From the IMG/VR virus record IMGVR_UViG_3300023174_000071, positions 62,001 through 126,000 of that record: a DNA stretch of 64,000 nucleotides. One strand, 5' to 3'. The notes beneath the pieces are model-generated. The model was not told the origin of the DNA. It ran no database searches and saw only the letters and a program-made list of their open reading frames with translations. Of this stretch, positions 17,226 to 64,000 are shown in pieces. Each line of letters opens with the position of its first letter. The first letter of the stretch is position 1. Both the position numbers and the translations under genes were made by a program. Source of the DNA: a virus.

Positions 17226-18839
17226 ATGAATCCGAAAGAAGTTGTATTTGGTGGTCAGGCTCGTGCGGAAATGCAAAAGGGAGTGGATACTTTAGCGAAC
17301 GCAGTTAAGGCAACCCTCGGCCCACGAGGACGCCATGTTGCGATTGAACGTCAATATGGCCCTCCTCTTATTACAAAGGACGGCGTTACGGTTGCTCGTA
17401 ATATTTTGTTGTTTAATCCTCTTCAGAATATGGGCGCTCAACTTGTAAAGTCAGTTGCCTCTGCGGCAAATGCAATCGCAGGAGACGGCACAACCACAGC
17501 GACAGTCTTAGCGCAAGCGATTTATAATGAAGGCGCAAAGATGGTTGCAGTTGGACACAATCCTGTTCTAGTTAAAAAGGGAATCGATCTCGGCGTTCAA
17601 GCTGTTGTTGATGCTCTAAAAGAAAATAGTGTTCAGGTTATCGATCCAGAAACCGTAAAGCATGTTGCATCAATTTCTGCAAATAATGATGTCTCTATCG
17701 GTCAATTAATTTCAGAAGCTGTAGCTGCAGTTGGTAATGATGGCGTAATTTCTGTCGAAGAAGCTACCGGGCTAAAGACGCACCTTGAATATACCGATGG
17801 TTTCGAGGTAGACCGTGGATATGTTTCGCCAGCATTTATTACAAATGAACAGCGACAATCCGTTGAACTAAAGAATCCATTTATTCTTTTTTATGATGAC
17901 CGCCTTTCGCAGACCAGTGATTTCATTAACATCATTAGTCAGATTCCTGAAACAAGTCGTCCTATTCTAGTTGTTGCAAAAGATATCGATGGCGATGCTT
18001 TGGCTACCTTGGTTTACAACAAAGGCAAGGGCGCTCTAAATTGCTGTGCGATTAAATCTCCAGGTTTTGGCGATTTTCGACGTGAATTTATGTCGGATCT
18101 TTCGACCCTCTGTGGCGGAAAGTTGTTTACGAATGAAGACGGGAAGTCTGTTCGTGAAGCTCAATTATCTGATCTTGGCTCCGCTGCTTCCGTTACGATC
18201 AATCGTAATAGCACAGTTATTATTGGCCCCAAGGGAAATCCTGCGCTTATCGAAGGTCGAATTGGAATGCTACGAGAGCAAATGAGAAATCCAAATCTTT
18301 ACGACCTTCAACGTGAAAATATTAAAAATCGCCTAGCGAAGCTTTCAGGCGGCGTTGCGGTAATTAAGGTTGGTGGCTCCACAGAGAGTGAGATGCGTGA
18401 GCGAAAGGACCGAGTTGAAGACGCCATTAATGCTGTAAAGTCAGCCATTCAAGAAGGTATCGTTCCGGGTGGTGGTTCAGCACTTCTTCACTGCACAAAG
18501 GCTCTTGATTCAATTTCTACAGATAATCTTCTTCCAGAAGAAGTGATTGGAATTGATATCGTTCGACGCTCTATTCGTGCTCCATTCCAGCAAATTTTAA
18601 CAAATGCTGGCGTCGAATATCATCAGTTTATGCACATGATTGTTGATGGTAGCGCCCGATGCGGATATGACGCTTTGCGTGGAAAATTTGTTGAAGATAT
18701 GGTTTCTGCGGGAATTATTGATCCTACAAAGGTTGTTCGCTCAGCGCTCGAACATGCAGCTTCTGCCAGTGGAACGCTTCTTACTACGGAAGTAACAATC
18801 TTTGATTTACTAGAAGAACCTACAGCTAAGCAGAATTAA
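17226..18839 (+). CDS. groEL: GroEL-type chaperonin, copy 1
   Basis: GroEL forms a double-ring ATPase that folds proteins. The 537-aa product aligns from the N-terminus with bacterial GroEL: LGPRGRHV (31-38), KDGVTVA with the catalytic Asp52, and GDGTTTATVLA (86-96). It also has the intermediate-domain segment RKDRVEDAINAVKSAIQEGIVPGGG. The flexible Gly-Gly-Met tail is absent. It has its own promoter, leader hairpin and terminator, so it is an independent unit. No groES is visible. Likely clients are virion proteins. Confidence 0.96.
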   Translation: MNPKEVVFGGQARAEMQKGVDTLANAVKATLGPRGRHVAIERQYGPPLITKDGVTVARNILLFNPLQNMGAQLVKSVASAANAIAGDGTTTATVLAQAIYNEGAKMVAVGHNPVLVKKGIDLGVQAVVDALKENSVQVIDPETVKHVASISANNDVSIGQLISEAVAAVGNDGVISVEEATGLKTHLEYTDGFEVDRGYVSPAFITNEQRQSVELKNPFILFYDDRLSQTSDFINIISQIPETSRPILVVAKDIDGDALATLVYNKGKGALNCCAIKSPGFGDFRREFMSDLSTLCGGKLFTNEDGKSVREAQLSDLGSAASVTINRNSTVIIGPKGNPALIEGRIGMLREQMRNPNLYDLQRENIKNRLAKLSGGVAVIKVGGSTESEMRERKDRVEDAINAVKSAIQEGIVPGGGSALLHCTKALDSISTDNLLPEEVIGIDIVRRSIRAPFQQILTNAGVEYHQFMHMIVDGSARCGYDALRGKFVEDMVSAGIIDPTKVVRSALEHAASASGTLLTTEVTIFDLLEEPTAKQN

Positions 18840-21410: not shown

Positions 21411-24400
21411 ATGTTACAATCTTTATGGCCTCAAATTTTAAATAAATTGCGCTCTCCGCCTTCTGGTGTTCAGTTGGGCTCTTTGCCCTCGATCCTTAAT
21501 GGCTTTGATAAAATTATTTTTGAAAACACGACCCCTTCCGGTAATCCGAATGCTCTCGGTTTTGTTTCAAATGAGGATGCAAACCAGAATGGTAAAATTG
21601 ACTCCATTCACTTTGTTGTTCCAAATATTGAAAAAGCCTTAAGAGAGCAGGGCGTTAAGCTTTCAAGTTCTTCGGATCTGGAAGGGGAAAATTTAGTTAA
21701 ATTGTTTTATTTTTTTGGGCAGCTTTTAGCTCACGAACTCGCTCATATTCGAGATTACCAACATAACTCGAAATCTCCTTTTCCGGGAGGAGAAAGTCCG
21801 GCGGAGCAAGAAGCTCAAAAATTTGAATCACAATTTTCGGTTACTGCTAATATACGAAAATCCAATGATACTGTTTATAGGGGATCTAATATGAACTCAA
21901 AATTTTCTGGAAAATCAATTGCTAATAGCTCCAAGTTGGCTGCGTCAAATAAAAAATTTATCAGCAAGACAGCGAAACTTCTAAAGAACGCCGAAGCTGA
22001 CTTTGGACAAAGTTTCCCTGATGAACTTCCACCTTTCAACGAAACAGATCCTGCTTCACTTCCAGATGATGTTAGCCCAACTCTTCCAGAAGAAAAGTCT
22101 GCACCTTATCATATTCCCGCGAAGCCATCTCATCGACCGGCGGCAAAATCTCACACCCCAAAGCCAAATGAATTTATACGAGAAATTCAAAAAAGATTAG
22201 ATATGCCAAAGCAAACTGGCATTTGGGAAGATGCAGATAACGCTTATTGGCGTCATTTTATTGAAGAAAACTATAAGGGCAAACTTGATATGGTCATTAA
22301 GGCGAACTGGGCTGCTGGCGCCCGTGGTCTTGGTTATTCACCAGATCCGGAAGGGATGCTTAATTTTATCAAGAATATTGAATTGAAGCAGATCGCTCAA
22401 CCCGGACCTGTTACCGTTGCTGGGCTCAATAAAAAGTTTATTAGCAAGAAAGCGCAGATTGCTACCGAAAATCTTCGCATGATGGAAGATAAGAGGATGA
22501 AAGAAAATTCTCTCCCCTCCGCTCCACCATCTGTTTCTGAACGCTTATATTCTCAAATTGATTCTGCTGTTAAAAATAAAAAACCATCTACAAATATGCC
22601 GTCTGATGATTCCTCCGAAGAAATCTTTAAAACATATAATGAGTTTGAGGGAGTACCTCAATATGATATGTCCAAAGATTTAGACGTACCAAGTCAGTCA
22701 AATTTCGTAGAGAAAGATTCGGTAGTTCGTATTTCTCCAAATTTACCTCAACAGCTTATCCCCCTTTCTCTTCGTGATGGTGTTTTAAATCAAAAAGGTG
22801 AATTGGCGAGATGTTTAAAAGAAAAAAACAACTATAAGACATTCAAAGAATTATCACATCTTTTAGACGCCGGTTTTATTGAGCTTAGCGAAAGACTTAA
22901 GGTTAATGGAACTCTTTCTCCAAGAGTACCTTCTATGTTGAAAGGTTTTATGGTTAACGGTGAGATTACAAAAATCTTAGAATTTATAAATGCAAATAAT
23001 TCATTAACTGCAAAATATCTTCCAAAAGCTAATGTTAATGACTTTACTCTTGATGCGAAACTTCTTTCTATACTAAAAGAAATGAGATCAAATGCTATTC
23101 GCTTAGGTCAAATGCTTTCTGAATGTTCGGAAAGTTTAGCAAAGCGGACATTTGATGATTCCTCTGTTCCGCAAGTAAAACCATCACAAGTTAATCCGAA
23201 GCCAAAAGCATCTTCTTCAAACTCTCTTTTGGTTCAATTTCAAGAGTTAATTGGCGCTCCAAAGCCACTTGAATCAAGTTGGGGTTCTATGACGGATAGA
23301 GCGTGGAAGAACTTTATTAATGTAAATGTTCATGACGAGGTTGCGAAAGGCAAATTAAAACAACCTTGGAGTGAAGCCTCTAAATATGCATCCGGTGTTG
23401 CCGGAAAGCAATATGCGCCAACTCTCACTGGTGTTTTTGAATTCGCAAAGGATCTTAAGAGCAACAGCAATATCCGTAATCTTTTTGATAAATCAGATGA
23501 GCTTATCGATACCGCTGATTCAAATCAGTCAAAACAATCTATCGCATCTTCAAAGAAAATGATTAGCAAAAGGGCTATAACGAGGGATGTCGAGGGTGGC
23601 GCTTACATGTCTCCAGTTGAAAAAGCCAATTTAGATAAGTTAAAACTAGAAGAACAGCAGCAGAAAGAAAAAGCGCAACTTGAAGAAAGAAATAAAGCGC
23701 TTTTAACTGATCCCAATTACAGAGCTCAAGTTTTAATTCCAAAATTAAAGCTATACTCTTTGCAGCCCATAAAAACATATAAAACTAATGATGGAAAGGT
23801 TTATTATTATGTAACTGATGGTAAACTTCTTCATTTTTACCAACAGGTCGGTAACGCTTCAAAAGAAATAGAACAAATTTTAGATATTCAAAAGATTGTA
23901 GACCAGATTCACCTAGAATCTTCTAAAAAACCATCTATAGCCAAAAAACCATCTCATGAAACACTTGATAAAATCCAAAAAGAACTTGGTGTCCAAACTT
24001 CTGGAAAGTGGGACGCTCAAACTCAAGCGGCTTGGGTTAAATTGGTTGCTGAAAAATATTCAGGATCAGAAGATATAAAGAAATCATTATCAGAAAGCTG
24101 GGTAAAGGCTGCTCCGGGGTTAAAGCTTGAGCCGACCGCTGCTGGTGCGTTAAAGTTCATTCAAGATTTAAAGGCTGATAAATATTCTGCTAAAACTTCT
24201 GAATCTAAACCAGCTGAAGCTGCTTCAACTGAAACTGCTCCAGCGACTCAACCAGCCGCACCTGAGGCTCAGAAAGAACAACAGTTTACACAAGAAAATT
24301 TGGTAGGTATTCTTCAGGATTTAGCCTCTGGAAGCTTGCCATTTCAAACTGCAGGCGGAACAAATATTCTTTCTGCGGAAAGAGTCGGAGCGCAAGCCAG

Positions 24401-24635
24401 TAGATTCATTAAAAGATTAGGTGGTCTTGAGGCTGCTGCAAAAGCGATTATGCCAAATATAAATGCAAATACATTTAAGACAATGAATAAAGATAATCAA
24501 CGATATAGCGTATTCGTTCAGCTTGAAAAGCTTGGAGAGTCTGGTTTTGGTCGATTCTTCACAAGAGAAGCTCCGGGTAGATTAGAAAGAGCACTAAAGA
24601 GAGAAGAACGAAGAGCAAAGCGACGACAAGGCTAA
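21411..24635 (+). CDS. Large modular protein: HExxH domain and peptidoglycan-binding-like repeats
   Basis: The 1074-aa product begins with a metallopeptidase-like domain (QLLAHELAHIRDYQH, HExxH at 108-112, with Glu-rich AEQEAQ downstream). Three similar modules follow at about 254-323, 604-685 and 849-924; each has a (V/I)Q.ELG or IQKRL start, a Trp, and a distal F(I/A)K(N/D)(I/L), resembling peptidoglycan-binding domains. Three near-identical linker motifs, KKFISKTA (181), KKFISKKA (341) and KKMISKRA (715), separate the parts. The C-terminus is strongly basic. It is probably a virion or lysis-related polyprotein. A terminator follows. Confidence 0.6.
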   Translation: MLQSLWPQILNKLRSPPSGVQLGSLPSILNGFDKIIFENTTPSGNPNALGFVSNEDANQNGKIDSIHFVVPNIEKALREQGVKLSSSSDLEGENLVKLFYFFGQLLAHELAHIRDYQHNSKSPFPGGESPAEQEAQKFESQFSVTANIRKSNDTVYRGSNMNSKFSGKSIANSSKLAASNKKFISKTAKLLKNAEADFGQSFPDELPPFNETDPASLPDDVSPTLPEEKSAPYHIPAKPSHRPAAKSHTPKPNEFIREIQKRLDMPKQTGIWEDADNAYWRHFIEENYKGKLDMVIKANWAAGARGLGYSPDPEGMLNFIKNIELKQIAQPGPVTVAGLNKKFISKKAQIATENLRMMEDKRMKENSLPSAPPSVSERLYSQIDSAVKNKKPSTNMPSDDSSEEIFKTYNEFEGVPQYDMSKDLDVPSQSNFVEKDSVVRISPNLPQQLIPLSLRDGVLNQKGELARCLKEKNNYKTFKELSHLLDAGFIELSERLKVNGTLSPRVPSMLKGFMVNGEITKILEFINANNSLTAKYLPKANVNDFTLDAKLLSILKEMRSNAIRLGQMLSECSESLAKRTFDDSSVPQVKPSQVNPKPKASSSNSLLVQFQELIGAPKPLESSWGSMTDRAWKNFINVNVHDEVAKGKLKQPWSEASKYASGVAGKQYAPTLTGVFEFAKDLKSNSNIRNLFDKSDELIDTADSNQSKQSIASSKKMISKRAITRDVEGGAYMSPVEKANLDKLKLEEQQQKEKAQLEERNKALLTDPNYRAQVLIPKLKLYSLQPIKTYKTNDGKVYYYVTDGKLLHFYQQVGNASKEIEQILDIQKIVDQIHLESSKKPSIAKKPSHETLDKIQKELGVQTSGKWDAQTQAAWVKLVAEKYSGSEDIKKSLSESWVKAAPGLKLEPTAAGALKFIQDLKADKYSAKTSESKPAEAASTETAPATQPAAPEAQKEQQFTQENLVGILQDLASGSLPFQTAGGTNILSAERVGAQASRFIKRLGGLEAAAKAIMPNINANTFKTMNKDNQRYSVFVQLEKLGESGFGRFFTREAPGRLERALKREERRAKRRQG
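22170..24182 (+). repeat. Three diverged coding modules within the 1074-aa protein
   Basis: The coding modules lie at about 22170-22379, 23220-23465 and 23955-24182. They share protein patterns rather than DNA identity, including NAYW/RAWK/AAWV followed about 30 residues later by W..A...A.G. This points to old domain duplication. Confidence 0.5.
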
Positions 24636-49166: not shown

Positions 49167-50825
49167 ATGAGCAAAACTATTTTGCATAATGCTGACGCTC
49201 GTGAAAGAATCTTGGCGGGAGTAAAGACTCTTGCTGATGTTGTTGCAGTAACCATGGGACCAAAAGGTCGAAATGTTATTGTTGGAAAAACATTTGGAAA
49301 CCCAACCATTACAAAAGATGGCGTTTCGGTGGCCAGAGAAGTTGTTCTTGATGACCATGTTGAAAATATGGGTGCCCAGCTTGTAAAAGAGGTGGCAGGA
49401 CGCACAGCAGATGTTGCTGGGGATGGAACTACCACCTCAACCGTTCTCGCTGCAGAAATTCTAAAAAATGGCATGGATTTGATGGCTACCGGTTACAGTC
49501 CTCTCGACTTCCGAGATGCTATGGATATCATTTCAAAGCAAATTGTCAGTCAGCTATCCTTTATCTCTACGCCGATTAAAAGCGTCCAGGATTTGGAAAA
49601 TATTGCAACGATTTCTGCAAATAACGATCGCACACTAGGTTTGAGTATTGCAGAAGCGTTTGATTCAGTTGGTTGGACGGGTACAGTTACAGCAGAAGCT
49701 GTTCCGGGTGTTGAGACTTCTGTTCGTCATATTGATGGCTTGGAATTAAAATCTGGCTTTATTACTTCTGCGTTCTTGGCCGGAGAGCAATCTTCTGTTT
49801 GTATTTATGATAATTGCAAAATCTTGATTTGCGATAGAGAAATTACGCACCTTGAAGATTTTCTTCCTGTTCTAACTTCTCTTCATACTTCCAATCAGGC
49901 TATCTTGATTATCGCTCGTTCTGTTAAGCAGGAAGCTCTAAAGGTTCTTGTTGAGAATAAAAAGCTTGGTCGCTTGAAGTCTGTAGCTATTGAAACTCCT
50001 TCATTCTCAGGAAAGAAGCGGGAGTGGCTTGAAGATTTAGCATCACTTGTTGGAACCTATGTTGTCAGCGAAGATGAAGGAAATCCTTTGTCTAAAATGA
50101 AAGTTGAGGACCTTGGTTCCGCTGATCGAGTTATTGTCGATAAATATTCAACAAAAATTCTTGGAGGTAATAAGGATGTCAAACGAATCGAATCCAGAGA
50201 AAAGGTCTATTATCGTGATTTGCAAAAGCTTATTGGAGAAAACGAACGTTTGGATATCAAAGAACGATTGGCTTTTCTATCTAGTCGTGCGGCTGTTCTA
50301 AGCGTAGGCTACTCTACGGAATTAGAACTTCGAGAAAAGGGTGATCGAGTGGATGATGCTTTGTCCGCAACTCGAGCCGCAATTGAAGAAGGAATTGTTC
50401 CCGGTGGAGGTGTTTCGATTCTAAAAGCTGCTCAGGCGGTATTGGAAGAGCAAGCTTTTGATTTGAAGTATCTACCTGCTGTGAATTGTATTTTTCAATC
50501 TAGCAAAAAGCCTCTGCGACAGATGCTGTATAACGCCGGAAAATCTGATTCTGAAATTGAGCAAATTATCGCTGAAACCTTAAATTCAACAAAGCTTGGA
50601 TTTGGTTATGATATCGCAAAAGGTTCTTATTGTAACCTGTTAGAAGCGGGTATCATTGATCCCAAGAAAGTGACCCGAACGGCTTTTCAAAATGCAGTGA
50701 GCATTGCGTCTCTTATTATTACAACAGAAGCTCTTATTGCAGATCGTCCGGATAATCCTTCTGGATATCAACCTCCAGCAGATTATCGTCTACCTGATAA
50801 CAAAAACCTAAACCACAAACGCTGA
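49167..50825 (+). CDS. groEL: GroEL-type chaperonin, copy 2 (diverged)
   Basis: The 552-aa product has the GroEL core: MGPKGRNVIVG (30-40), KDGVSVA with Asp51, AGDGTTTSTVLA (84-95) and IEEGIVPGGGVSIL. It differs widely from copy 1 (17226-18839), especially in the apical domain, and carries a Pro/Asn-rich C-terminal tail (PDNPSGYQPPADYRLPDNK) instead of Gly-Gly-Met. It lies in an operon with RuvC-like and RecA-like genes. Either each copy has its own clients or they form mixed rings. Confidence 0.95.
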   Translation: MSKTILHNADARERILAGVKTLADVVAVTMGPKGRNVIVGKTFGNPTITKDGVSVAREVVLDDHVENMGAQLVKEVAGRTADVAGDGTTTSTVLAAEILKNGMDLMATGYSPLDFRDAMDIISKQIVSQLSFISTPIKSVQDLENIATISANNDRTLGLSIAEAFDSVGWTGTVTAEAVPGVETSVRHIDGLELKSGFITSAFLAGEQSSVCIYDNCKILICDREITHLEDFLPVLTSLHTSNQAILIIARSVKQEALKVLVENKKLGRLKSVAIETPSFSGKKREWLEDLASLVGTYVVSEDEGNPLSKMKVEDLGSADRVIVDKYSTKILGGNKDVKRIESREKVYYRDLQKLIGENERLDIKERLAFLSSRAAVLSVGYSTELELREKGDRVDDALSATRAAIEEGIVPGGGVSILKAAQAVLEEQAFDLKYLPAVNCIFQSSKKPLRQMLYNAGKSDSEIEQIIAETLNSTKLGFGYDIAKGSYCNLLEAGIIDPKKVTRTAFQNAVSIASLIITTEALIADRPDNPSGYQPPADYRLPDNKNLNHKR

Positions 50826-53698: not shown

Positions 53699-53709
53699 GA
53701 TAAAATAAG
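53699..53709 (+). promoter_or_regulatory. GATAAAATAAG motif before the virion block
   Basis: The 118-base gap before the first virion-block gene holds GATAAAATAAG, identical to 18913-18923, without a -35 box. A short CGCA-TTTT-TGCG hairpin (53681-53692) precedes it. It is a candidate late promoter element. Confidence 0.3.
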
Positions 53710-53760
53710 CGTTTTTTCTTTCTACTAATAGCAAAACAAAAAACTGGAGATATATACTTT

Positions 53761-54264
53761 ATGCCAAAAGAAAAGTATACAGCGAAAATTGATGGCATTC
53801 TCGCTGAAGTTTTAAAAGGTGCCTCAAAAACTATCGCTGATAAAGATAAGCTAGTTGTAACGGCAGAAAACACTAATTTTATCAAAAAAGTAGCGTTTGA
53901 TGTTTATCGTGTAGAGAATGATCCATATGACGGCTTATGGCTTATGGAACAAGCTGACGATGGAAAAAATTATTTAGTTAGAGCGAGCGATCCTCAGTTT
54001 GAATACAAGAAAAGCGGTGAGTGGGAAGCCATTACGGATTATGGCCAAGAAAACATCACTCTTTCATACAAGAATGTTCCTATCGCTCGTTTCTCTTCAA
54101 AAGATTATGGCTTCACTTCCGAAGATGCTTCCACATTTAAATCAGCAATCCTAGAGAAAGCTGGCTCTGATGAGGATTTTATTAAGGGCGTTCTTTCAAC
54201 TCAACCTGAAGGTAAGCGTTCGGCCATCTGTACCACTTTCCCTGAACTCAAAAAATATATCTAA
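53761..54264 (+). CDS. Hypothetical protein, first gene of virion block, 167 aa
   Basis: The product is soluble, with a mixed alpha/beta composition and a conserved-looking YRVENDPYDGLWLMEQADDGKNY segment. Position suggests a virion or assembly protein. It is followed after 8 bases by the 515-aa gene. No family recognised. Confidence 0.6.
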   Translation: MPKEKYTAKIDGILAEVLKGASKTIADKDKLVVTAENTNFIKKVAFDVYRVENDPYDGLWLMEQADDGKNYLVRASDPQFEYKKSGEWEAITDYGQENITLSYKNVPIARFSSKDYGFTSEDASTFKSAILEKAGSDEDFIKGVLSTQPEGKRSAICTTFPELKKYI

Positions 54265-54272
54265 GGTGTTTT

Positions 54273-55820
54273 ATGCAAGACATTAAAAAAATTCTAAAAC
54301 AAGCTCAATCTGCTTTGGAAGCACTTCAAAGCGGAAAGAATTACCCTTCCGTCTACGTCGTTTCTCGTCTTAACTCTGCGCTTGATAAGCATCCTCACAA
54401 CCAACTTATTGGTAATATGAGAGATGTTTTTACAAAGATTGCTTCAAAAAATGAATTTATCTCTCAAGCTCAGATTGCGGAAACTTACAATAATTTCTAC
54501 GGTTTAGCTGGAAATTCTGTAGACTTTCGTGCGGAACTTGGCGATCTTCTTCCTTCAAGCCTAAATGTTGAAAATACAGTTAAGGTTGACGCCTCTAATC
54601 TTCGCACAAACGAAGGTACTTCCGTTGAGCCACTTTTCGGCGCTTCTGATGCTTCCCGTGCTTTTGAAAAGCTTTTTCCTGTAAAAGAAATTGCGGCATC
54701 AAAATTCTCTGATGGAATATTCAAGAAGGCGGAGAAGTTTGCTCAGGCTCAACTAGAATCTATTGGTTGCAAGCCTGATGCGATTAGCATTATCGAAGCG
54801 AATGAACATTTCGCTCTATGTCTAGCTTCCTATGGAACGCCAGATATGGTTCAGATTGGCGTTAAGGTTCCTGTTCAGATTTCTGAAAATGTTGTAAAGT
54901 TTCCAGAACACCTCATCCACGGCGACGAACTACTTCCTCTAACCAAGGAAAATATCTACGTTCAGATTGCTGACGAGATGAATGTTCGTAAGGCTAACCT
55001 TAAGAATAAATTCGCTCTAGGCCGCAGCGAAACCGTTGTAACGATTGATCCGGTTGTTGTTCCAGCTAGCTTACAGCAGTTTACGGATATCGAAAATGAA
55101 TTAGTTGCAGCCGGAGCTCATTTTACACCAACTGATATTCGCTATGCTTCCAATATTGTTTCTACGGAGCTTATGGCTTGCGGTGTAAAGAGTCCTCAGC
55201 TAAAGGTTGCATCATCTACAAAGAATGTTCTAACATTCTCTGCTAGCATTCCAACTGCCTCCGGACGAAAGGATGTAACTGTTCCTGTTGAATTCCATAA
55301 CGGAAAGCCAACTCTTCCAAGCAAATTCGTATACGCTTCTGATGCTTATGATTTCGATACGGCTTCCGTTTCTCGTTTTCTAAATGAAAACCTAAATACA
55401 GAAACGGCATCATTCACACGCGACCACGATAATATGGAAAATATGTCTTTCCATGAACTATCTGATCTTGTAACCGCTGGCGCTCTTAAGAATGATTATA
55501 AGCTTTCTGAAGACGCTCTTGATGCGATTGGTTCACGCTTCCCTGACCAATTTAAGCTTGCTCTAGATAGCTTCTCCAAACTTCTAAAGAATGCTTCTGC
55601 GACCTCTAGTCGTGAAAAGCTTATCAAAGAAGCTATTAAACGTGGCGAACTAATCTCCGTCCCAACCTCTATTGAACCTTACAGTCCAAAGTTTGCGCTA
55701 CCAGTCAGCAAGCTAGATTTCGATGAAAGTGGTCGCCTAATTCCATCTCATCGCAAGAAAGCATCTGAAGTTGAAGCTGCAATCATTGCGACAAATGCTT
55801 CTCGCATCATCATGAACTGA
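54273..55820 (+). CDS. Probable virion structural protein, 515 aa
   Basis: I recognise no domain. The protein has a helical N-terminus, an FKKAEKFAQAQ segment (150-160) and a C-terminal SHRKKASEVEAA that fits the loose K-x-A pattern of other candidates. Its codons are rich in CTT, GCT and TCT compared with many neighbours, and the upstream spacing is short, which may mean high expression. Confidence 0.6.
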   Translation: MQDIKKILKQAQSALEALQSGKNYPSVYVVSRLNSALDKHPHNQLIGNMRDVFTKIASKNEFISQAQIAETYNNFYGLAGNSVDFRAELGDLLPSSLNVENTVKVDASNLRTNEGTSVEPLFGASDASRAFEKLFPVKEIAASKFSDGIFKKAEKFAQAQLESIGCKPDAISIIEANEHFALCLASYGTPDMVQIGVKVPVQISENVVKFPEHLIHGDELLPLTKENIYVQIADEMNVRKANLKNKFALGRSETVVTIDPVVVPASLQQFTDIENELVAAGAHFTPTDIRYASNIVSTELMACGVKSPQLKVASSTKNVLTFSASIPTASGRKDVTVPVEFHNGKPTLPSKFVYASDAYDFDTASVSRFLNENLNTETASFTRDHDNMENMSFHELSDLVTAGALKNDYKLSEDALDAIGSRFPDQFKLALDSFSKLLKNASATSSREKLIKEAIKRGELISVPTSIEPYSPKFALPVSKLDFDESGRLIPSHRKKASEVEAAIIATNASRIIMN

Positions 55821-55831
55821 GGTTTTTTAAA

Positions 55832-56296
55832 ATGTCAAAACTTACATCTATTCTAAAAACTGCTTCTAAAATGGAAGATCGTTCTCTCGCTAGAAAGATT
55901 CGAGTCGCTGCAATTGAAAGTTTTGGCGTAGTAAAGACCGCTCAAACTGCATCTGGAGTTTTATCTTATGATAACTCCAGAGCGACTGTTGATTATCCTA
56001 CTCGTGAAGAAGTCCTTCGCATGAGAGGCGGAAAGCCCGAAGATCGTTCAGAACTTTACCCAACAAAGAAAGAAGAAAAAGTTGACGTTGAACTACCTTA
56101 CGTTCAACCATCTCTTTCAACTCGTTATGTTCCAGGTAAACCCGGCCTTCAAGCGGCGAGAGTTCTAGACACAGAAGGTGCATACCAAGACCCTTATACA
56201 AAGAAAGTATTCAATTGGTATGAAGGATTTAAGGCGGAAAACGGTGAGGAGTTCGCTCCCGGATCGGTTGCGAATCAATCACAACTTCATTACTAA
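55832..56296 (+). CDS. Probable virion protein with KTAQ motif, 154 aa
   Basis: The first 40 residues are basic and helical and end VVKTAQTASG (residues 33-42); the rest is extended and charged. This is the expected layout of a protein with a cleaved N-terminal propeptide, if K-T-A-Q is a maturation site. A terminator follows the gene. Function unknown. Confidence 0.55.
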   Translation: MSKLTSILKTASKMEDRSLARKIRVAAIESFGVVKTAQTASGVLSYDNSRATVDYPTREEVLRMRGGKPEDRSELYPTKKEEKVDVELPYVQPSLSTRYVPGKPGLQAARVLDTEGAYQDPYTKKVFNWYEGFKAENGEEFAPGSVANQSQLHY

Positions 56297-56324
56297 GAAG
56301 CAACGAAAAATGGTAAAATAAAAT

Positions 56325-56353
56325 AGGCTCCTCCCGGAGCCTTTATTTTTTTT
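56325..56353 (+). terminator. Intrinsic terminator
   Basis: AGGCTCC (56325-56331), loop TCCC, GGAGCCT (56336-56342), then TTATTTTTTTT. Confidence 0.9.
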
Positions 56354-56361
56354 GGTGAAAC

Positions 56362-57078
56362 ATGGATAAAGATAAGCCTGATAATAGCAAGATTTTGCGG
56401 CATCCCGATAAAGAAGAAATTGTAAAAAAACTGATTAACGGTGAATCCGTAAAGCAAATTGAAGCTTGGTTAAAAAAGAAATATCCAAGAACAAAAAGGC
56501 TTCATGTTTCATATATGACTCTTCAGAAGTTTCGCTCTCAGAATTTAAATATTAAGGGCGAGCTTTTAGAAGAAGTAAAGAAAGCAAAATTAGAATTAGA
56601 GCAAGTTTCTGTCGATACTCAGCTAAGAGATTTGACGACAAATTCTAATGCCTATCAGGATAAGATTAAAGAAATCGCTAGTAAAGAATTGGATGTTACA
56701 AAGAGATTGCTTGAGATGGATAAAATCATTTCGTCTCGCATTGAATACTATTACAATATCCTTGCTGCTGGTGGCTCGATTAAGCATGATAAAATTTTCA
56801 TTGAATATATTTCGATGCTTAAGTCTATTATGCAGGATTGGAAGAAGTATGTAGAAGGTTTCGCTGATCAAAAAATTGAACACAATGTAAACGTTCAGGT
56901 TGTAAATACGCAGGTTTCTATTCTAAAAGAGGTTGTTTTTGAAACTCTTCAAGAAATGTCTCCTGAACTTGTTCCTGTTTTTATTGATCGAATCAATAGA
57001 AAATTGACCGGTCTGGATACATCTTCACCAGAATATAAATCCTATCAATTAGGGGTTATTGATGTCGAACCAGAATAA
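56362..57078 (+). CDS. Helical protein, possible terminase small subunit, 238 aa
   Basis: The N-terminus (KEEIVKKLINGESVKQIEAWLKKKYP...VSYMTLQKF) resembles a helix-turn-helix, followed by a long helical oligomerisation region. That is the general layout of terminase small subunits, and the large subunit lies about 6 kb downstream. The match is by layout only; another DNA-binding virion-assembly factor is possible. Confidence 0.45.
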   Translation: MDKDKPDNSKILRHPDKEEIVKKLINGESVKQIEAWLKKKYPRTKRLHVSYMTLQKFRSQNLNIKGELLEEVKKAKLELEQVSVDTQLRDLTTNSNAYQDKIKEIASKELDVTKRLLEMDKIISSRIEYYYNILAAGGSIKHDKIFIEYISMLKSIMQDWKKYVEGFADQKIEHNVNVQVVNTQVSILKEVVFETLQEMSPELVPVFIDRINRKLTGLDTSSPEYKSYQLGVIDVEPE

Positions 57079-57331
57079 AGAACAAAAAATGGGGAAGCTT
57101 ACACTTGAAGATTTAAGTGGTCTTAGTTTATTCGATCAATGGCTTAGAAGCAATTTGGCCATCTACAAGGATTCTGAGGTTGGAACCATATCATTTGATG
57201 AGTTGTTAATATTTCTAAATTATATTGAAGAAAAGGCGTCTGATTTTAATAATAAGTTAGATCGTAAAAAATGGAAAAAATCTGTTTCAAAATTAAAGAC
57301 GCACATTCAACATCAAATGGACGGATTATGA
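57062..57331 (+). CDS. Hypothetical protein, 89 aa
   Basis: ATG 57062 lies 7 bases after AGGGG and overlaps the upstream gene by 17 bases. The product is a small helical protein with a basic C-terminus (KKWKKSVSKLKTHIQH). It overlaps the next gene by 4 bases. Confidence 0.55.
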   Translation: MSNQNKEQKMGKLTLEDLSGLSLFDQWLRSNLAIYKDSEVGTISFDELLIFLNYIEEKASDFNNKLDRKKWKKSVSKLKTHIQHQMDGL

Positions 57332-58911
57332 TTAACAATATTCAGATTGCAAAACAGGCCTTTGGTAAAAATCGTCTAAATTCTTTTTGCTATGAAAACG
57401 CTTTAGCGAAGGGTGCTTCCTTAACTGCTGATGATGTTTCTGCTTTAATTCTTTTCTCAAAAGAAGATGTTAAAACAGAAGATGAGCTAAAGCTAGCTGC
57501 CAGTATTTATAATATTTTATCATTTTCTCATGGCAGCGTTTCTGAAGAGATATTCAAACAGGCATATGGTGACGCCTCCATCTCTGAAGTAAACACATCT
57601 GCAGATCTATATCAGATTGTTTTGGAAGCCTGCCAAAAGAAGGGTACCTTTAACAAGAAGGCTTACCCAAATGGATCTGGCGCTCTATCTCCCGAAATTG
57701 AATCTGAGTCGGATTTAGTTCGCTGGGGTAATATTGTAAAGCAAATCTATAACGCCTCTCTATCTGGTGAAATAGATGTGGATCAAGGCATTCGTATTGC
57801 TCAAGAAAAATTAAATAAAGCGAATCCTCAATCTAAAGAGGGTGATCGTTTTATGCATTGGGTTAACTATTATAAAAATGGCGAACATTTAAAGTATAGC
57901 GCTGAAAAAGGAAAAAATATGTACAAAAAAGCAAATTACCAATTTAGCCCCAAAGGAAGTCAGCAGTACACCGGCACTCCAGACTTGCGACAATCTACGG
58001 GTAATGATATTTTAGATATATTCGCAGCGAATCCTGATGTTGGAATCTTTGAGTCTAAAGTTTTAGATGCAAAGCACGAAACCGATAAGAAAAATGATTA
58101 TAAAGCTTGGAAATCAAAGCTTCACACCGCCATTCGAAGAATTGATAAATTAATTCGAAATAGCGATGGTTTAATCGAACCTGAGATTACAGAAAGACTA
58201 TCTGAAATATTGCATTCTTTCGACCTTCAGGTTGGCAGAGCTAAACTTCATACTACAGCTTCTGATTTAACCTTCAAGACCGCTCAGCAGTTTAAGAAGC
58301 TTGGATTTGATGCTGGTTCAAATATTTTAATTAAAGTTGCTCAGCAAACTCCTCCTGTAGAAGAACCTGTGGCTCCAGCTGAAATTATGCCAGAAACCGT
58401 TGAGGCTCCACAGGCGCCAGCGGCGGAAGGCCAACTTCAAGAGGCGGGAGTTCAAACAGAAGAGCCTGCCGGAGAAGAACAACCACAATCAAAACCGAAT
58501 ATGTATGGGAAAGAATTCTCTCTAGATGATGCGGTTGAGAAGCTAGACGAAGTGTCAAACATGTTGGCCGATCGTGCAGTTATTCGTATGCTTTCCGAAT
58601 TCGACATTATTCTCGATAGCATTGGTATTGCGTCAATGTTCCCAGAGTTGGCCGAAGCTCAAAGTAAATTAATTGATGGTTACTCCTACGCTCTTACTCG
58701 TGTAACAAAAATGATGGGTATGATTGGTAGCGGAAGAACTTTATCTGAACTTGCTCGTGAAAAGCAAGATTCGTTGGATGCGAAAGCTGAAGGCTTAGCT
58801 GAAAAAGAACTAGCGAGAGGTAAAGAATCATCTGAAAAAGAAGAAGAACCAAGTCCTCAGCAGAAAGAATTTGGTAATGCACCTGCAGCACCTCCCGCGC
58901 AAACTGTATAG
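57328..58911 (+). CDS. Probable virion protein with KTAQ and KVAQ motifs, 527 aa
   Basis: ATG 57328 overlaps the upstream stop (ATGA). The product has a helical N-terminal half, motifs NKKAYP (109-114), YKKANYQ (199-205), FKTAQQ (316-321) and IKVAQQ (335-340), then a Pro/Ala/Glu-rich linker (about 342-410) and a helical C-terminal domain ending in an acidic tail. The linker marks two separable domains. It is probably a virion or internal protein; no family recognised. Confidence 0.55.
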   Translation: MINNIQIAKQAFGKNRLNSFCYENALAKGASLTADDVSALILFSKEDVKTEDELKLAASIYNILSFSHGSVSEEIFKQAYGDASISEVNTSADLYQIVLEACQKKGTFNKKAYPNGSGALSPEIESESDLVRWGNIVKQIYNASLSGEIDVDQGIRIAQEKLNKANPQSKEGDRFMHWVNYYKNGEHLKYSAEKGKNMYKKANYQFSPKGSQQYTGTPDLRQSTGNDILDIFAANPDVGIFESKVLDAKHETDKKNDYKAWKSKLHTAIRRIDKLIRNSDGLIEPEITERLSEILHSFDLQVGRAKLHTTASDLTFKTAQQFKKLGFDAGSNILIKVAQQTPPVEEPVAPAEIMPETVEAPQAPAAEGQLQEAGVQTEEPAGEEQPQSKPNMYGKEFSLDDAVEKLDEVSNMLADRAVIRMLSEFDIILDSIGIASMFPELAEAQSKLIDGYSYALTRVTKMMGMIGSGRTLSELAREKQDSLDAKAEGLAEKELARGKESSEKEEEPSPQQKEFGNAPAAPPAQTV

Positions 58912-58936
58912 CCAACTTAAGGCGTAAAGTGATAAT

Positions 58937-61288
58937 ATGAAAATCAAAGAAGCGTTAAGAAAACTTTATGATATCTCCAAAGAATACGCCATCGACACTC
59001 CATATGTTGTTGGCGGTATTCCAAGAGACATTTATATTGGCGAACAAATAAAAACAAAAGATATTGATATTACGACCAATACTGCTGACGTTTTAATGTT
59101 GGCTATTTTGTTTTCTCAAAAAACGGGATTAAAATTAACGCTTCTTGAAGATGGCCATGCTATTGTTTTTTCTGATGATTTTAAATTAGATTTTTCGACG
59201 CACACCATTTACCCTGAAGTGGTTGAGCATTTGCAGCCTGTCGGTTCGGATTTAGATGTAAAAATGTATGAAGTATTTAGTCGAGACTTTACGATAAATA
59301 CTTTACACATGCATCCTTTAACCCAAGATATTCTTGATCCGACGAACAAAGGTATAGCCGATATTAAGGCGAAGATTATTAGAACCCCTGTGCCCGCTGA
59401 GATTACTTTATCAGCGGATCCTAGACGAGCCTTTCGTGCAATAAAATTCGCCGTTCAATATGGTTTCGATATCGATTCAGATATTTCATCTTTTTGTAAT
59501 GATAATTTTGAATTATTTAAGAATAGCGATATTGATTCATTTATCCTTGACACTATTGATGCTTCCATGAAGATTGATGAAGATCGAACTGTCGCTTTGC
59601 TTAAGGAGATGGGATTATTCAAAGTTGTACCTTTAGCTGGAAAGCTTAAAGATTATTTAATTAAGAATCACTCCGTATTGGATTACTTTGAAGAAAAGCG
59701 TTCTGTTGCTTCTTCAAAAATTGGATTAAAAAAGATATCCGAAGTTGTTGCTAAAAATTGGGAAGAATACGAAGCTCAAGGTCCGGATTTCAAAGAACTT
59801 GCAGATTTTTGGAAATTAAATTGGAGACAGATTCCTGGCATTTTAAGCTCTGATTATCAAAGCTGGAAGTCTTGGTATAAAAATCTTTTTAAGCAAGAGT
59901 GGTCTGAACAGCATAAAAATCCAAAAGAAGTATTGGATATGCTTCAACAATATATCTCTTCTAAATCTGGCCCATTACAATCTGTTATTGTGAAAGAATT
60001 AAAGGTCGGACCAGAAGTAGATCGAAAGCTTTTTGATGTTTCTTCTCATAGAGAAGTGAAAGGCATTCCGATTTCTGGAATCAAATGGTTCTCAAAAGAT
60101 GATCGTGGAGTAGATTTATCTCCTCAATCTTTGAACTTCTTAGAGAAGCTTTCTGATAAGATTAATTTTCCTGTAGTTATAACATCAGGAACCCGAACGC
60201 TAAAAGAACAAGCTAAGGCTATGTGGAAAAATTTAAGAAGAGATGGATTCGCCCGATTGGTTGAATTATATCCGGACGCCTTAGTTAAAGATATGCAGTT
60301 TGCCAAGAGCGAAAAAGATATCGAAAATATATTGCTTGAGAAGCAAAATGAAATGCCAATCTCCGCCCATCTTTACGGTGAAGGTTTAGACTTCAGCATA
60401 AGAAATCTTTCTTCAGAAGAAAAAGTCGCCTTAATGAATGCGGCAAAAGAAGTGGGCTCTAGAGTTATTGATGAGCACAATCATATTCACGTTCAATTTG
60501 GAAAATTTGCTTCTGTTGAAAATGGAATTGTGAAAAAAGCAATTCATAGCTTTGTTGCCAAAAATTGGGAAGAGTATGAAGCCCAAGGCGAAAATTATAA
60601 AGACTTAGCTAACTATTGGAAAAATAATTGGAATCAGATTCCGGGTGCAAAAAGTGATTCTTTTATTGATTGGAAAGATTGGTATAAAAATCAATTCCAT
60701 GAGGCTTGGTCCGGCAAGCATAAATCACCAGAGGAAGTTCTTCAGTTATTTAAAGTTCCGCAAAGTTTAGAGATGAAGCCTGAATCGACTCGAATGGAAC
60801 CTGCATCTCAAGTGGTTAAAGAAAAAGTTGTTGAGTCAATTCACAAGCAGCTTTCACCAAAAGAGAACGCAGATATCATTATGAAGATATTTACTTCAAA
60901 TGGTTTCAGCCAAAATATTGCAAAAGCGGCGATAGTAAATGCTCAAGCTGAGTCTGGTTTAAATAACCTAGCCATTGGTGACAGTGGACACTCTTTAGGT
61001 TTATTTCAATTAAATGATCGTGGCGCCGGTAGAAATATTGCCCTACCGATGGTTAACGGTGAACCTGATTTAAATGATCCAAGATTTGATCCAGAAAAAA
61101 ATACATTAGAGATCATTAAAGAAATCAACTCTCCTTATGGAAATAGATTAAAATTTGCTGACAAAAATAGGGAGCCTATTTCGGTTTTAAGTCAAATCTT
61201 CAGTGAGGATATTGAGCGACCAGCAGATAAGCGCCGTCAAGCAAGAGAGCGAAGAAATCTTTCTAGGAAACTTTTCCCCGAAGAATAA
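58937..61288 (+). CDS. Fusion: CCA-adding-type nucleotidyltransferase, M15-type peptidase and lysozyme-like domain
   Basis: This single 783-aa frame has three enzyme-like parts. Residues 1-250 match the head and neck of tRNA nucleotidyltransferases: VVGGIPRD (24-31), KDIDI (Asp42, Asp44), SRDFTINTLH (115-124) and DPRRAFRAIKFA (161-172). Residues about 375-525 read as an M15-type D-Ala-D-Ala peptidase: ITSGTRT (415-421), HLYGEGLDF (His478, Asp485) and HNHIHV (His516, His518). Residues about 640-700 read as a lysozyme or transglycosylase: NAQAESGLN (Glu672) and GDSGHSLGLFQLN. Two copies of a Trp-rich module (271-339, 540-604) flank the peptidase. Its place in the virion block suggests an injected protein. 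Confidence 0.8.
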   Translation: MKIKEALRKLYDISKEYAIDTPYVVGGIPRDIYIGEQIKTKDIDITTNTADVLMLAILFSQKTGLKLTLLEDGHAIVFSDDFKLDFSTHTIYPEVVEHLQPVGSDLDVKMYEVFSRDFTINTLHMHPLTQDILDPTNKGIADIKAKIIRTPVPAEITLSADPRRAFRAIKFAVQYGFDIDSDISSFCNDNFELFKNSDIDSFILDTIDASMKIDEDRTVALLKEMGLFKVVPLAGKLKDYLIKNHSVLDYFEEKRSVASSKIGLKKISEVVAKNWEEYEAQGPDFKELADFWKLNWRQIPGILSSDYQSWKSWYKNLFKQEWSEQHKNPKEVLDMLQQYISSKSGPLQSVIVKELKVGPEVDRKLFDVSSHREVKGIPISGIKWFSKDDRGVDLSPQSLNFLEKLSDKINFPVVITSGTRTLKEQAKAMWKNLRRDGFARLVELYPDALVKDMQFAKSEKDIENILLEKQNEMPISAHLYGEGLDFSIRNLSSEEKVALMNAAKEVGSRVIDEHNHIHVQFGKFASVENGIVKKAIHSFVAKNWEEYEAQGENYKDLANYWKNNWNQIPGAKSDSFIDWKDWYKNQFHEAWSGKHKSPEEVLQLFKVPQSLEMKPESTRMEPASQVVKEKVVESIHKQLSPKENADIIMKIFTSNGFSQNIAKAAIVNAQAESGLNNLAIGDSGHSLGLFQLNDRGAGRNIALPMVNGEPDLNDPRFDPEKNTLEIIKEINSPYGNRLKFADKNREPISVLSQIFSEDIERPADKRRQARERRNLSRKLFPEE
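59747..60748 (+). repeat. Tandem-type coding repeat flanking the M15 domain
   Basis: Two related coding segments lie at 59747-59953 and 60554-60748. Both products begin VAKNWEEYEAQG and share W..NW.QIPG, WK.WYKN.F...WS..HK.P(K/E)EVL. The unit could be a cell-wall or virion-binding module. Confidence 0.75.
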
Positions 61289-61334
61289 TATTTTCTCTGC
61301 TAAATTAGTATGATAAATTGATAGGAGTTTTATT

Positions 61335-61733
61335 TTGCTTAGAGGCGATAAAAAACCATGCCCTTTTGGTCTTAAAATTCCAAGTGATTGTGAGACTATT
61401 GGTACAAAGGTTTTGACAATGCAACCAAATGAGCCTTCATCAAATGAAATGAAGGAGCAAGCGAGGGTAAATCAATTACCTGGTTGCAATTTTTGCATTT
61501 ACGCAAAAACAATATTTGCAGAGAAAAAAGCTGTAGATTGTGCGTTTAATGATGTTCCTCAAGATGTTACGGTTGGAACTGGAAATTTTTATCCTCATAT
61601 TTTCATTGGAACGCAAACTCAGCCTACTTCTATGAATTATTCCTCATCTTTCCATAGTGATAGTGCTTATCACGACAACAATTTAGACACTCAGATGTTT
61701 CCCGGTGCAATATCTTTTTATGGGAATCACTAA
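61335..61733 (+). CDS. Cys-containing hypothetical protein, 132 aa
   Basis: The start is TTG after TAGGAG. The product has four or five Cys in a layout that could bind metal (KPCPFGLKIPSDC, GCNFCIYAK, VDCAF), then a His/Asn/Ser-rich tail. It may be a small virion or assembly protein. No family recognised. Confidence 0.55.
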   Translation: MLRGDKKPCPFGLKIPSDCETIGTKVLTMQPNEPSSNEMKEQARVNQLPGCNFCIYAKTIFAEKKAVDCAFNDVPQDVTVGTGNFYPHIFIGTQTQPTSMNYSSSFHSDSAYHDNNLDTQMFPGAISFYGNH

Positions 61734-61754
61734 TTTTGGCTTTAGGAGTCTTTT

Positions 61755-62780
61755 ATGAAAATCGCTAAAACTGCTCAACATACACTTGTACCTATGACGT
61801 CTTCTCATGTAGAACCTGTTGTAATTCAATTTTCAGAAGAAGACGAGTCTCATGAGCATCCACATGCAGAATTTCATGAAATTGAAGTTCTTGATTCTCC
61901 TGTAGAATTTGAAGAAGAAATGGATGAAGATTCTGTGGAATTTTCAGAAGAAGATCTAGAACAAACTCCAGCTGAAGTTGCGGAAGATATTGCCGAAACT
62001 GCTGACGAAATTGTTTCTGAGTATGGCGAAAGCGTTGTTGAGTTTGCGGAACAATTCTTTGATGAAGATGAGACTCTAGAAGATCTAGAGATGGATGTAA
62101 AAAGCTCCATTCCGGGTCTAGAAGGCGAACTCGAAGAAGAAGAGGAAGAAGAAAAGAAGGAAACCACTTGGGAAGATGACCGAGATGTTTCTAAATTCAT
62201 GGATTATATCCACGCCTCTTATCCTACAAAGATCCCACGCCATGATGGTAAGTCCATGATTGGTTGTGAGCGAGCCATGTTATTCTTAAATAAGATCAAC
62301 AAGGAAATCTCTGAAGCTATCCGTATGGATCATGACGGCCAGCTTGATGCAGAAGAACTAGAAGAAACCCGCATCAAGATTATGAAAGATCTTATTGTCC
62401 TAAAGAAGCACCTTAATGCTCTAAAAGAAAAAGTTCTTGAAGTTCGCGCATCAAACGAAGATGGCCTTGTTAAAGAAGCAGAATTAAACAAAACCGCCAC
62501 AACTTCAATAATTCAAGTTGTTGCAACGCCATTTGAGCGAGCCATCGTTGGCATCCTAATCAACGCTGTGGTTTCTGCTGGAAATTCCTTTGAAGATGTA
62601 TTTGATTTCCTAAAGGAAAAATACAAGCTTAATGAACGTGAAGAGCTTGCGATTTTCCAACTTGTCATGGATAGCGGATATCACATTTACAAAGACCGTG
62701 GCGCTATTTCCGAAAAGGAATCTGCTGAAGATAAAAACGGAAAAGATGGCGTAGACTTCGTTCGCAACTATCTCGCCTAA
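61755..62780 (+). CDS. Acidic probable virion protein, N-terminal KTAQ, 341 aa
   Basis: The product begins MKIAKTAQ, matching the K-x-A-Q motif, and then has a very acidic first half (about residues 25-150) followed by a helical C-terminal half with TPFERAIVGILINAVV. The acidic region may bind basic partners or act as a scaffold-like segment. A strong TAGGAG site precedes the start. Confidence 0.55.
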   Translation: MKIAKTAQHTLVPMTSSHVEPVVIQFSEEDESHEHPHAEFHEIEVLDSPVEFEEEMDEDSVEFSEEDLEQTPAEVAEDIAETADEIVSEYGESVVEFAEQFFDEDETLEDLEMDVKSSIPGLEGELEEEEEEEKKETTWEDDRDVSKFMDYIHASYPTKIPRHDGKSMIGCERAMLFLNKINKEISEAIRMDHDGQLDAEELEETRIKIMKDLIVLKKHLNALKEKVLEVRASNEDGLVKEAELNKTATTSIIQVVATPFERAIVGILINAVVSAGNSFEDVFDFLKEKYKLNEREELAIFQLVMDSGYHIYKDRGAISEKESAEDKNGKDGVDFVRNYLA

Positions 62781-62789
62781 GGAGGCCTT

Positions 62790-63392
62790 ATGTCTTTTCG
62801 ACGTATCGATCAAAAAGAATCCTATAATGTTACGGCGGATTGGCTAAAGGATTTTGCAAATAAAATGTCTAAGGAAGGTAGCTTCCTAGACAATATCGGT
62901 GGAATCATTGAGCAAACGAAGAATAAATACGGCTCAATAGAAGAAAAAATGGTTGATATTCGCCAGCGTGTCGGTTTTGACACGTTGGCTTCCATTCGCG
63001 ATTCAGAAGAAGAAAAGGTAGCAACTGCATCCGGTCCTTGTTGTGACAAATGCGTAGATGGTCATTCTTGCAAAATCTCTACTGCTGGCAATCTAGATGT
63101 AGAGCAGATGAAAGCCATCCTAAGCTATGCAAAACAAATGATTCAAAAGAATCCGGATCCAAACCTATCTTCTGTTGCCGTAATTGAAGAATGCCGCTCT
63201 CGACCAGATTTAAATTGGAATAACTTAAAGATAAACGAGCAAAAATTCAAGCAGGCTGTTCAAACCGAAATTGAAAAAACAAGACCAGTTAACGTTTCAA
63301 CGCCAGAATATGTAAGCCCCATTACTGATTCAAGTTCAGAGCATCAGGATACTACAGCGGAATACTTCAGTCACAGCGCCCCTAAACTATAA
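62790..63392 (+). CDS. Hypothetical protein with CCxxC metal motif, 200 aa
   Basis: The N-terminal half is helical; the middle has GPCCDKCVDGHSCK, a probable metal site. The C-terminal half is helical followed by a Ser/Thr-rich tail. AAGGAGG lies upstream. It immediately precedes the terminase and is likely a packaging or virion protein. Confidence 0.55.
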   Translation: MSFRRIDQKESYNVTADWLKDFANKMSKEGSFLDNIGGIIEQTKNKYGSIEEKMVDIRQRVGFDTLASIRDSEEEKVATASGPCCDKCVDGHSCKISTAGNLDVEQMKAILSYAKQMIQKNPDPNLSSVAVIEECRSRPDLNWNNLKINEQKFKQAVQTEIEKTRPVNVSTPEYVSPITDSSSEHQDTTAEYFSHSAPKL

Positions 63393-63417
63393 GTCTTGTT
63401 GATTAAAACAATGAACC

Positions 63418-64000
63418 ATGACGAAAAGCAAAAAACAACAAGAGAGTGAATTATTTGATCAAATAAAATCCGGATTCTTAGATTATGATCCGGCTTATTA
63501 TATTCAAAATAATTTAACATTAGATGGAACTGAATTTCGAATCATCGGAAATGGTTGGAAATTTATGGCTGATATCTATCGTTATATCGGCCTTCAAGCG
63601 CCTCAGAAAAATGGCAAACCGGTTGTTATAAAAAAAGGTCGTCAGGTTGGTGCAACCATGATGGCTGGCGCTTTGGATTTATATTTTACGAATAGTGCTC
63701 TATTCTCCAAGCCAGCTATTCGTGTTGCTCATCTTTTCCCTGCTCTTGCTCACGTTAAAAAGTTTTCGCAAGATAAACTAGAGGGAATGATTCGAACGGC
63801 AAAAGGCGATGTTATCAATAAAAATAAACTAAAATCGCAAAATGCTGTTGATAATTTAACCATGAAGCAATTCGAAAACGGAACTTTATGGATTGACGCT
63901 CTTGGCGCTGACGGCGACAGACTTCGTGGTATGACGATTGACGTGGCGCTTATTGACGAATTTCAAGATGCTTACCCATCTGCTGTTAATAACGTTTTGA
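63418..64000 (+). CDS. Terminase large subunit, partial (runs off the window)
   Basis: The ATG at 63418 opens a frame that is still open at the window end (at least 194 codons). It reads MTKSKKQQESELFDQ..., a deviant Walker A (KKGRQVGATMM) in which the usual Gly-Lys-Thr is Gly-Ala-Thr and the Lys sits at the start of the loop as in lambda-type terminases, then Walker B VALIDEFQDA. The terminase motor ATPase packages DNA into proheads. The ribosome binding site is weak. The nuclease domain lies beyond the edge. Confidence 0.88.
   Translation, partial: MTKSKKQQESELFDQIKSGFLDYDPAYYIQNNLTLDGTEFRIIGNGWKFMADIYRYIGLQAPQKNGKPVVIKKGRQVGATMMAGALDLYFTNSALFSKPAIRVAHLFPALAHVKKFSQDKLEGMIRTAKGDVINKNKLKSQNAVDNLTMKQFENGTLWIDALGADGDRLRGMTIDVALIDEFQDAYPSAVNNVL

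What the first reader, a model, noticed from the sequence alone, without database searches (positions are those of the whole stretch)
58937..61288. tRNA-nucleotidyltransferase head fused to two peptidoglycan-hydrolase-like domains
One uninterrupted 783-aa frame carries a CCA-adding-type catalytic head (GGIPRD, DID), an M15-type D-Ala-D-Ala peptidase (H...D...HxH) and a lysozyme-like domain (Glu672, GD..H.LGLFQ). I know of no described protein combining these. Its place between virion genes suggests a virion protein that enters the cell, digests peptidoglycan locally and delivers an RNA- or nucleotide-modifying enzyme. It could counter tRNA-cleaving defences or repair tRNA 3' ends at entry.
Basis: partly seen in the sequence, partly recalled or inferred. 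Interest (0 to 1): 0.88.

Follow-up and report, generated by a model that had tools for sequence, protein, structure and literature searches.

The report
Late phage nucleotidyltransferase fused to cell-wall hydrolases
A very large uncultured phage makes one protein that joins a tRNA-end-building-type enzyme to two cell-wall-cutting enzymes; the joining is a local gene fusion, but the nucleotide-adding part is a core gene found at the same place, beside the DNA-packaging genes, in every related phage examined.

Summary
The 783-aa frame (58937-61288) is real: a class II CCA-adding/poly(A)-polymerase head (1-250), an M15-type peptidase (346-530) and a Phage_lysozyme2 domain (641-783). Relatives change the meaning. 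In an uncultured large-phage clade (terminases 48-71% identical to this one) the head is a core gene at a fixed place 3-4 kb upstream of the large terminase: 61/61 distinct loci, catalytic residues invariant in 69 sequences. It nearly always stands alone at ~250-300 aa and lacks the tRNA-binding body/tail. REP-M15 is an extra gene of one sub-lineage, overlapping the head gene's stop in some relatives and fused to it in others (four distinct CCA-REP-M15 proteins). Only this window adds REP-lysozyme. So the three-enzyme protein is a recent fusion of neighbouring late genes, not an established delivery machine. Virion location and injection are untested. One relative carries the head plus a full-length canonical CCA enzyme elsewhere, and tRNA-gene counts range from 0 to 43 while the head is always there, so it probably does something other than routine tRNA maturation. 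New variant of known kinds.

The parts
58937..61288 (+). Complete 783-aa fused gene CCA head - REP - M15 - REP - lysozyme
58937..59704 (+). Class II nucleotidyltransferase head+neck (res 1-256); GGIPRD, DID, RDFTIN, DPRRAFR motifs
   Evidence: Pfam PF01743 1.5e-14; Foldseek 46/46 class II CCA/A-adding/poly(A) polymerases; catalytic residues invariant in 69 relatives
59720..59959 (+). REP copy 1 (res ~262-341), new ~70-aa helical aromatic-rich domain
   Evidence: self-comparison; conserved in 10 proteins; pLDDT ~90
59972..60526 (+). M15-type zinc peptidase (res ~346-530), ligands H478/D485/E513/H516/H518
   Evidence: sub-cut-off Pfam PF08291, Foldseek ChiX/VanY, invariant ligands
60536..60760 (+). 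REP copy 2 (res ~534-608)
60857..61285 (+). Phage_lysozyme2 domain (res 641-783), Glu672
   Evidence: PF18013 2.1e-9; relatives in cyanophage virion protein and Rhizobium phage tape measure
57271..58911 (+). Cluster 6 protein (546 aa), immediately upstream neighbour in 127/127 loci with flank
61335..61733 (+). Small Cys-rich protein (132 aa), conserved downstream neighbour; its remnant is fused to the head in L082
61755..62780 (+). Cluster 5 protein of the conserved operon
62790..63392 (+). Cluster 3 protein of the conserved operon
63418..63999 (+). Start of the large terminase (continues beyond the window; L006 418-2199)
   Evidence: PHROG 675 E 6e-64

Best explanation
The protein is a lineage-specific fusion of two neighbouring late genes of an uncultured large-phage clade. 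Gene 1 is a core gene of the packaging/virion operon: a head-only class II nucleotidyltransferase with an intact active site and NTP-selection motif, which should add C/A nucleotides to an RNA 3' end or transfer nucleotides to a phage partner. Gene 2 is an accessory cell-wall hydrolase of one sub-lineage: a REP domain that anchors or positions it, plus an M15 peptidase. In this phage a second REP and a lysozyme have been added. Shown: domain anatomy, conserved synteny, invariant catalytic residues, and overlapping genes in some relatives against fusion in others. Inferred: late expression (same-strand operon running into terminase and portal), local cutting of peptidoglycan by the C-terminal half during entry or release, and catalytic activity of the head. 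The fusion probably only links production of the two enzymes. The head's work is probably not just routine CCA addition to phage tRNAs.
For: Head within 6 kb upstream of the terminase in 61/61 distinct loci (113/113 loci); same neighbours in every locus with flank. Residues D42, D44, T46, D85, E112, S115, R116, D134, D142, R164 identical in 69/69 sequences; G26, G27, R30 in 68/68 that cover them. Stand-alone heads of 248-301 aa in most relatives. REP-M15 as a separate ORF right behind the head in five distinct relatives, with ATGA-type overlaps; fused in four distinct relatives plus the window. Carriers cluster on the head tree and the fused state needs 2 changes. M15 ligands invariant in 10/10. 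Relative G002 has a second, full-length enzyme with PF12627. 17/17 records have the head although tRNA genes number 0-43. A second Phage_lysozyme2 protein with a signal-like N-terminus lies elsewhere in the same genome.
Against: No expression, proteomic or enzymatic data. The 783-aa form is known from one metagenomic contig. The lysozyme fold is modelled with low confidence and the M15 call is just under Pfam's cut-off. G000 has four tRNA genes, two without an encoded CCA, so a plain tRNA-maturation role is possible in this phage. Most records are fragments, so tRNA counts of 0 may be incomplete.
Confidence: 0.72

Rival explanations
1. One reading: the whole protein is a virion component; the M15 and lysozyme domains open the wall at entry and the nucleotidyltransferase is carried into the cell to repair host tRNA ends or counter tRNA-cleaving defences.
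For: Gene lies in the structural/packaging operon; the lysozyme domain resembles virion structural and tape-measure proteins; the genome has another lysozyme that could be the lysis enzyme; proteomics of phage SU10 listed a CCA-like protein (PMC4281155).
Against: Most relatives keep head and hydrolase apart or have no such hydrolase, so the fusion is not needed. No tRNA-binding body/tail. No defence-related match. No proteomics.
Confidence: 0.2
2. Ordinary tRNA nucleotidyltransferase that completes or repairs 3' CCA ends of phage and host tRNAs late in infection; its operon position and its fusion are incidental.
For: All class II head motifs intact; two of four tRNA genes in this genome lack encoded CCA; jumbo phages are known to carry CCA-adding enzymes (PMC7824862).
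Against: Body/tail and PF12627 not detected; G002 has a full-length canonical enzyme as well and G003 a second 250-aa head; head present regardless of tRNA-gene number; strict linkage to packaging genes in 61/61 loci.
Confidence: 0.35
3. The C-terminal half is a lysis enzyme (endolysin) of this sub-lineage released late through a holin, with the head hitch-hiking by fusion.
For: Late operon; two catalytic wall-cutting domains in one chain are common in endolysins (general knowledge); no signal peptide seen by eye.
Against: A separate signal-bearing lysozyme exists in the genome; the lysozyme domain's nearest phage relatives are virion or tape-measure proteins; most relatives lack this gene.
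Confidence: 0.3
4. The fusion is a sequencing or assembly artefact joining overlapping genes.
For: In some relatives the two genes overlap by a few bases, so one indel could join them.
Against: In the window the REP frame has no ATG/GTG/TTG near the junction and no usable start in the other frames; four other distinct fused relatives, one (L056/L057) seen in two metagenomes.
Confidence: 0.05

Closest known systems
[quoted passage not shown] PDB 4wby, 1miv, 6qy6)
   Same: Head fold and motifs GGxxR, DxD, RDxTIN, DxxRxxR; best PDB matches by sequence and fold
   Different: Only head+neck (~250 aa); no body/tail or PF12627; in the virion/packaging operon; fused to hydrolases in one lineage
Short head-only phage nucleotidyltransferases (PHROG 24229; Pectobacterium phage PP2, LKD16, fHe-Kpn01 Gp22)
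   Same: Small PolyA_pol-head proteins of unknown function in phages (PMC7291057)
   Different: Only distant similarity (fold matches at 12-22% identity); none was found fused to wall hydrolases, though their operons were not examined here
Aeromonas phage 65 tRNA nucleotidyltransferase (348 aa)
   Same: About 32% identity over residues 23-182
   Different: Longer; neighbours are mostly hypothetical genes, not structural ones
Phage_lysozyme2 (PF18013) tail lysozymes and M15 peptidases (ChiX, VanY)
   Same: Domain hit over the Pfam cut-off for the lysozyme; M15 ligand pattern and weak fold match
   Different: Paired with a REP domain that has no solved relative and no significant family match, and attached to a nucleotidyltransferase

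Membership tests
Class II CCA-adding / poly(A) polymerase superfamily | Nucleotidyltransferase head with GG..R, DxD, RDxTIN and DxxRxxR motifs | tested here: met
CCA-adding tRNA nucleotidyltransferase (functional enzyme) | RNA-binding body/tail domains (PF12627 and C-terminal tail) | tested here: not met
   No PF12627 hit in the window protein or L056 while G002's second enzyme has it; stand-alone relatives end at ~250 aa
CCA-adding tRNA nucleotidyltransferase (functional enzyme) | Adds C, C, A to tRNA 3' ends | not testable with these tools
   needs an assay
Peptidase M15 | Zinc site H..D..E..HxH | tested here: met
   H478, D485, E513, H516, H518 invariant in 10 sequences
Peptidase M15 | Family profile or fold match | tested here: inconclusive
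   PF08291 22.6 vs 23.2 bits; ChiX prob 0.91 at E 0.08
Phage_lysozyme2 | Profile score over cut-off | tested here: met
   38.1 vs 28.2 bits
Phage_lysozyme2 | Lysozyme fold | tested here: inconclusive
   low pLDDT
Virion-associated peptidoglycan hydrolase | Gene in the structural cluster | tested here: met
   terminase, portal and a head-maturation-protease match downstream
Virion-associated peptidoglycan hydrolase | Protein present in virions | not testable with these tools
   needs proteomics of an uncultured phage

The most novel reading that the evidence does not exclude
In this whole phage clade a head-only nucleotidyltransferase is an obligatory part of virion assembly, packaging or entry (acting on an RNA, a DNA end or a phage protein rather than maturing tRNAs), and in one sub-lineage it is physically delivered with wall-cutting enzymes.
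Probability: 0.25. Interest if true: 0.8.

Novelty: new variant of a known kind. Interest (0 to 1): 0.52.

Why it matters
The odd fusion points to something more general: a catalytically intact CCA-type head locked into the packaging operon of a large, uncultured phage clade, with no tRNA-binding part, beside a canonical enzyme in at least one member. That makes testable whether phages use a tRNA-tail enzyme in virion assembly or entry. The clade also gives a clean series (no hydrolase, overlapping genes, fused genes, extra lysozyme) showing how multi-enzyme phage proteins arise.

Tried and rejected
Close relatives of the whole protein: none in IMG/VR or phage records. The lysozyme domain as a query found no IMG/VR relative. 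REP has no solved relative and no significant family match (only a weak PHROG 6303 hit, E 0.05). The L036 extension looked lysozyme-like by eye (ETESSKNY..GAYQI) but no library or phage record confirmed it, so a second, independent head-lysozyme fusion is not claimed. A motif h-K-x-A is enriched in virion-cluster proteins and lies near some head/REP junctions; I considered it a maturation-protease site, but the counts come from related sequences at homologous positions, so polyprotein cleavage stays a guess. Assembly artefact: judged unlikely. Counter-defence: no PADLOC match. Only one hit in bacterial genome contigs, a 13-kb MAG contig, so no host was inferred. Mixing separate REP-M15 ORFs into the head alignment misplaced them; that alignment was not used for folding.

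Full report
Observation. The frame 58937-61288 is a single 783-aa gene. Pfam gives PolyA_pol head (23-149, 1.5e-14), Phage_lysozyme2 (643-774, 2.1e-9) and a just-sub-threshold Peptidase_M15_3; PHROGs adds tRNA nucleotidyltransferase over 23-293. An internal repeat of ~70 aa, REP, was missed: it precedes M15 (266-338) and again the lysozyme (537-608) and occurs in no other protein of the window. The AlphaFold model is confident for the head (pLDDT 92-98, one loop lower) and mostly so for both REPs (about 80-94), fair for M15 (about 65-88) and poor for the lysozyme. All 46 significant PDB matches are class II CCA/A-adding/poly(A) polymerases. The best match of the C-terminal model is the M15-like endopeptidase ChiX, but at E 0.08.

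Setting. The window is 62001-126000 of a 128,325-base IMG/VR record. The gene is one of a same-strand series that runs into the large terminase (PHROG 675, 6e-64) and, by PHROG match in a relative, the portal protein and a protein with a head-maturation-protease match. The terminase finds only distant cultured relatives (about 24-26% identity in the best-listed records) but 79 IMG/VR loci at 48-71%.

What relatives show. In every terminase locus with at least 5 kb upstream the head lies within 6 kb: 113/113 loci, 61 distinct. Neighbours are fixed on both sides (127/127 and 130/130 where flank allows). In most the head stands alone, 248-301 aa. Its catalytic residues are invariant in 69 distinct sequences although overall identity to the window is only 28-50%. 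A profile scan for the family itself found 154 IMG/VR relatives and one MAG contig among bacterial genomes.

How the fusion arose. Five distinct relatives have a separate REP-M15 gene right after the head (L051, L067, L070, L094, L102); in four its start overlaps the end of the head gene by a few bases (ATGA or slightly more), while in L102 the longest frame begins further upstream. Four distinct relatives have head-REP-M15 as one 541-568-aa protein (L056/L057, L089, L091, L092), and the window adds REP-lysozyme. Within the same group L082 lacks M15 and its head is fused to a tail and the remnant of the next gene, and L107/L148 show no M15. Carriers cluster on the head tree (SH-aLRT 88, window nearby but unresolved) and the fused state needs two changes. 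The window junction has no start codon that would restore two genes, and four other distinct relatives are fused, so an assembly error is unlikely.

What the head does. It has everything needed for nucleotidyl transfer and for CTP/ATP selection (inference from class II enzymes) but ends where the tRNA-binding body and tail should begin; PF12627 is not detected. G002 carries a 470-aa canonical enzyme with PF12627 besides the operon copy, and G003 a second 250-aa head. tRNA genes in 17 records range from 0 to 43 while the operon copy is always present, with the caution that records may be fragments. This genome has four tRNA genes, two without encoded CCA, so the ordinary role cannot be excluded. 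Jumbo phages are known to carry CCA-adding enzymes (PMC7824862), a CCA-like protein was listed in the proteomics of phage SU10 (PMC4281155), and short head-only phage proteins of unknown function exist (PMC7291057). I put the ordinary tRNA role at 0.35 and a virion/packaging/entry role of the head at about 0.25.

What the C-terminal half does. M15 zinc ligands are invariant in ten proteins. The lysozyme domain's nearest phage relatives include a cyanophage virion structural protein and a tape-measure protein. The genome has another Phage_lysozyme2 protein with a signal-like N-terminus, which could be the lysis enzyme and leave this one for entry. That is inference; endolysin remains a rival.

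Verdict. Observation confirmed and extended. Interpretation partly supported: the domains and setting are right, but the combination is a young fusion of neighbouring genes and not evidence by itself for delivery of a tRNA enzyme. The larger find is the conserved head in the packaging operon. New variant of known kinds; interest 0.52.

Noticed in passing
window 53700-63400 and relatives: A motif h-K-x-A (often K-T-A) is over-represented in virion-cluster proteins (up to 9x shuffles) and not in terminase or non-virion genes; a protein of this set matches a head-maturation protease. May be a processing signal, or only homologous positions counted many times.
   Followed up: partly
L074, L075, L082, L085 (terminase ~948 aa); L020, L022, L025, L048 (portal ~940 aa): Terminase and portal genes in some relatives are ~350 aa longer than usual, as inteins or insertions would make them.
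   Followed up: no
window 17226-18839 and 49167-50825: Two GroEL-like genes in one phage genome (read by eye from the ORF translations).
   Followed up: no
window 21411-24635: 1074-aa protein with an HExxH motif and repeated KK(F/M)ISK(K/R/T)A segments and peptidoglycan-binding-like repeats by eye; no Pfam or PHROG match.
   Followed up: partly
window 61335-61733 and homologues: Small conserved Cys-rich protein (CPFGL..C..C..C) always after the head; shortened without the cysteines in the REP-M15 sub-lineage (L051, L056, L067, L070).
   Followed up: partly
L165 890-1642; L168 369-1781 (-): Second nucleotidyltransferase genes in two large relatives: a 250-aa head and a 470-aa canonical enzyme.
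   Followed up: yes
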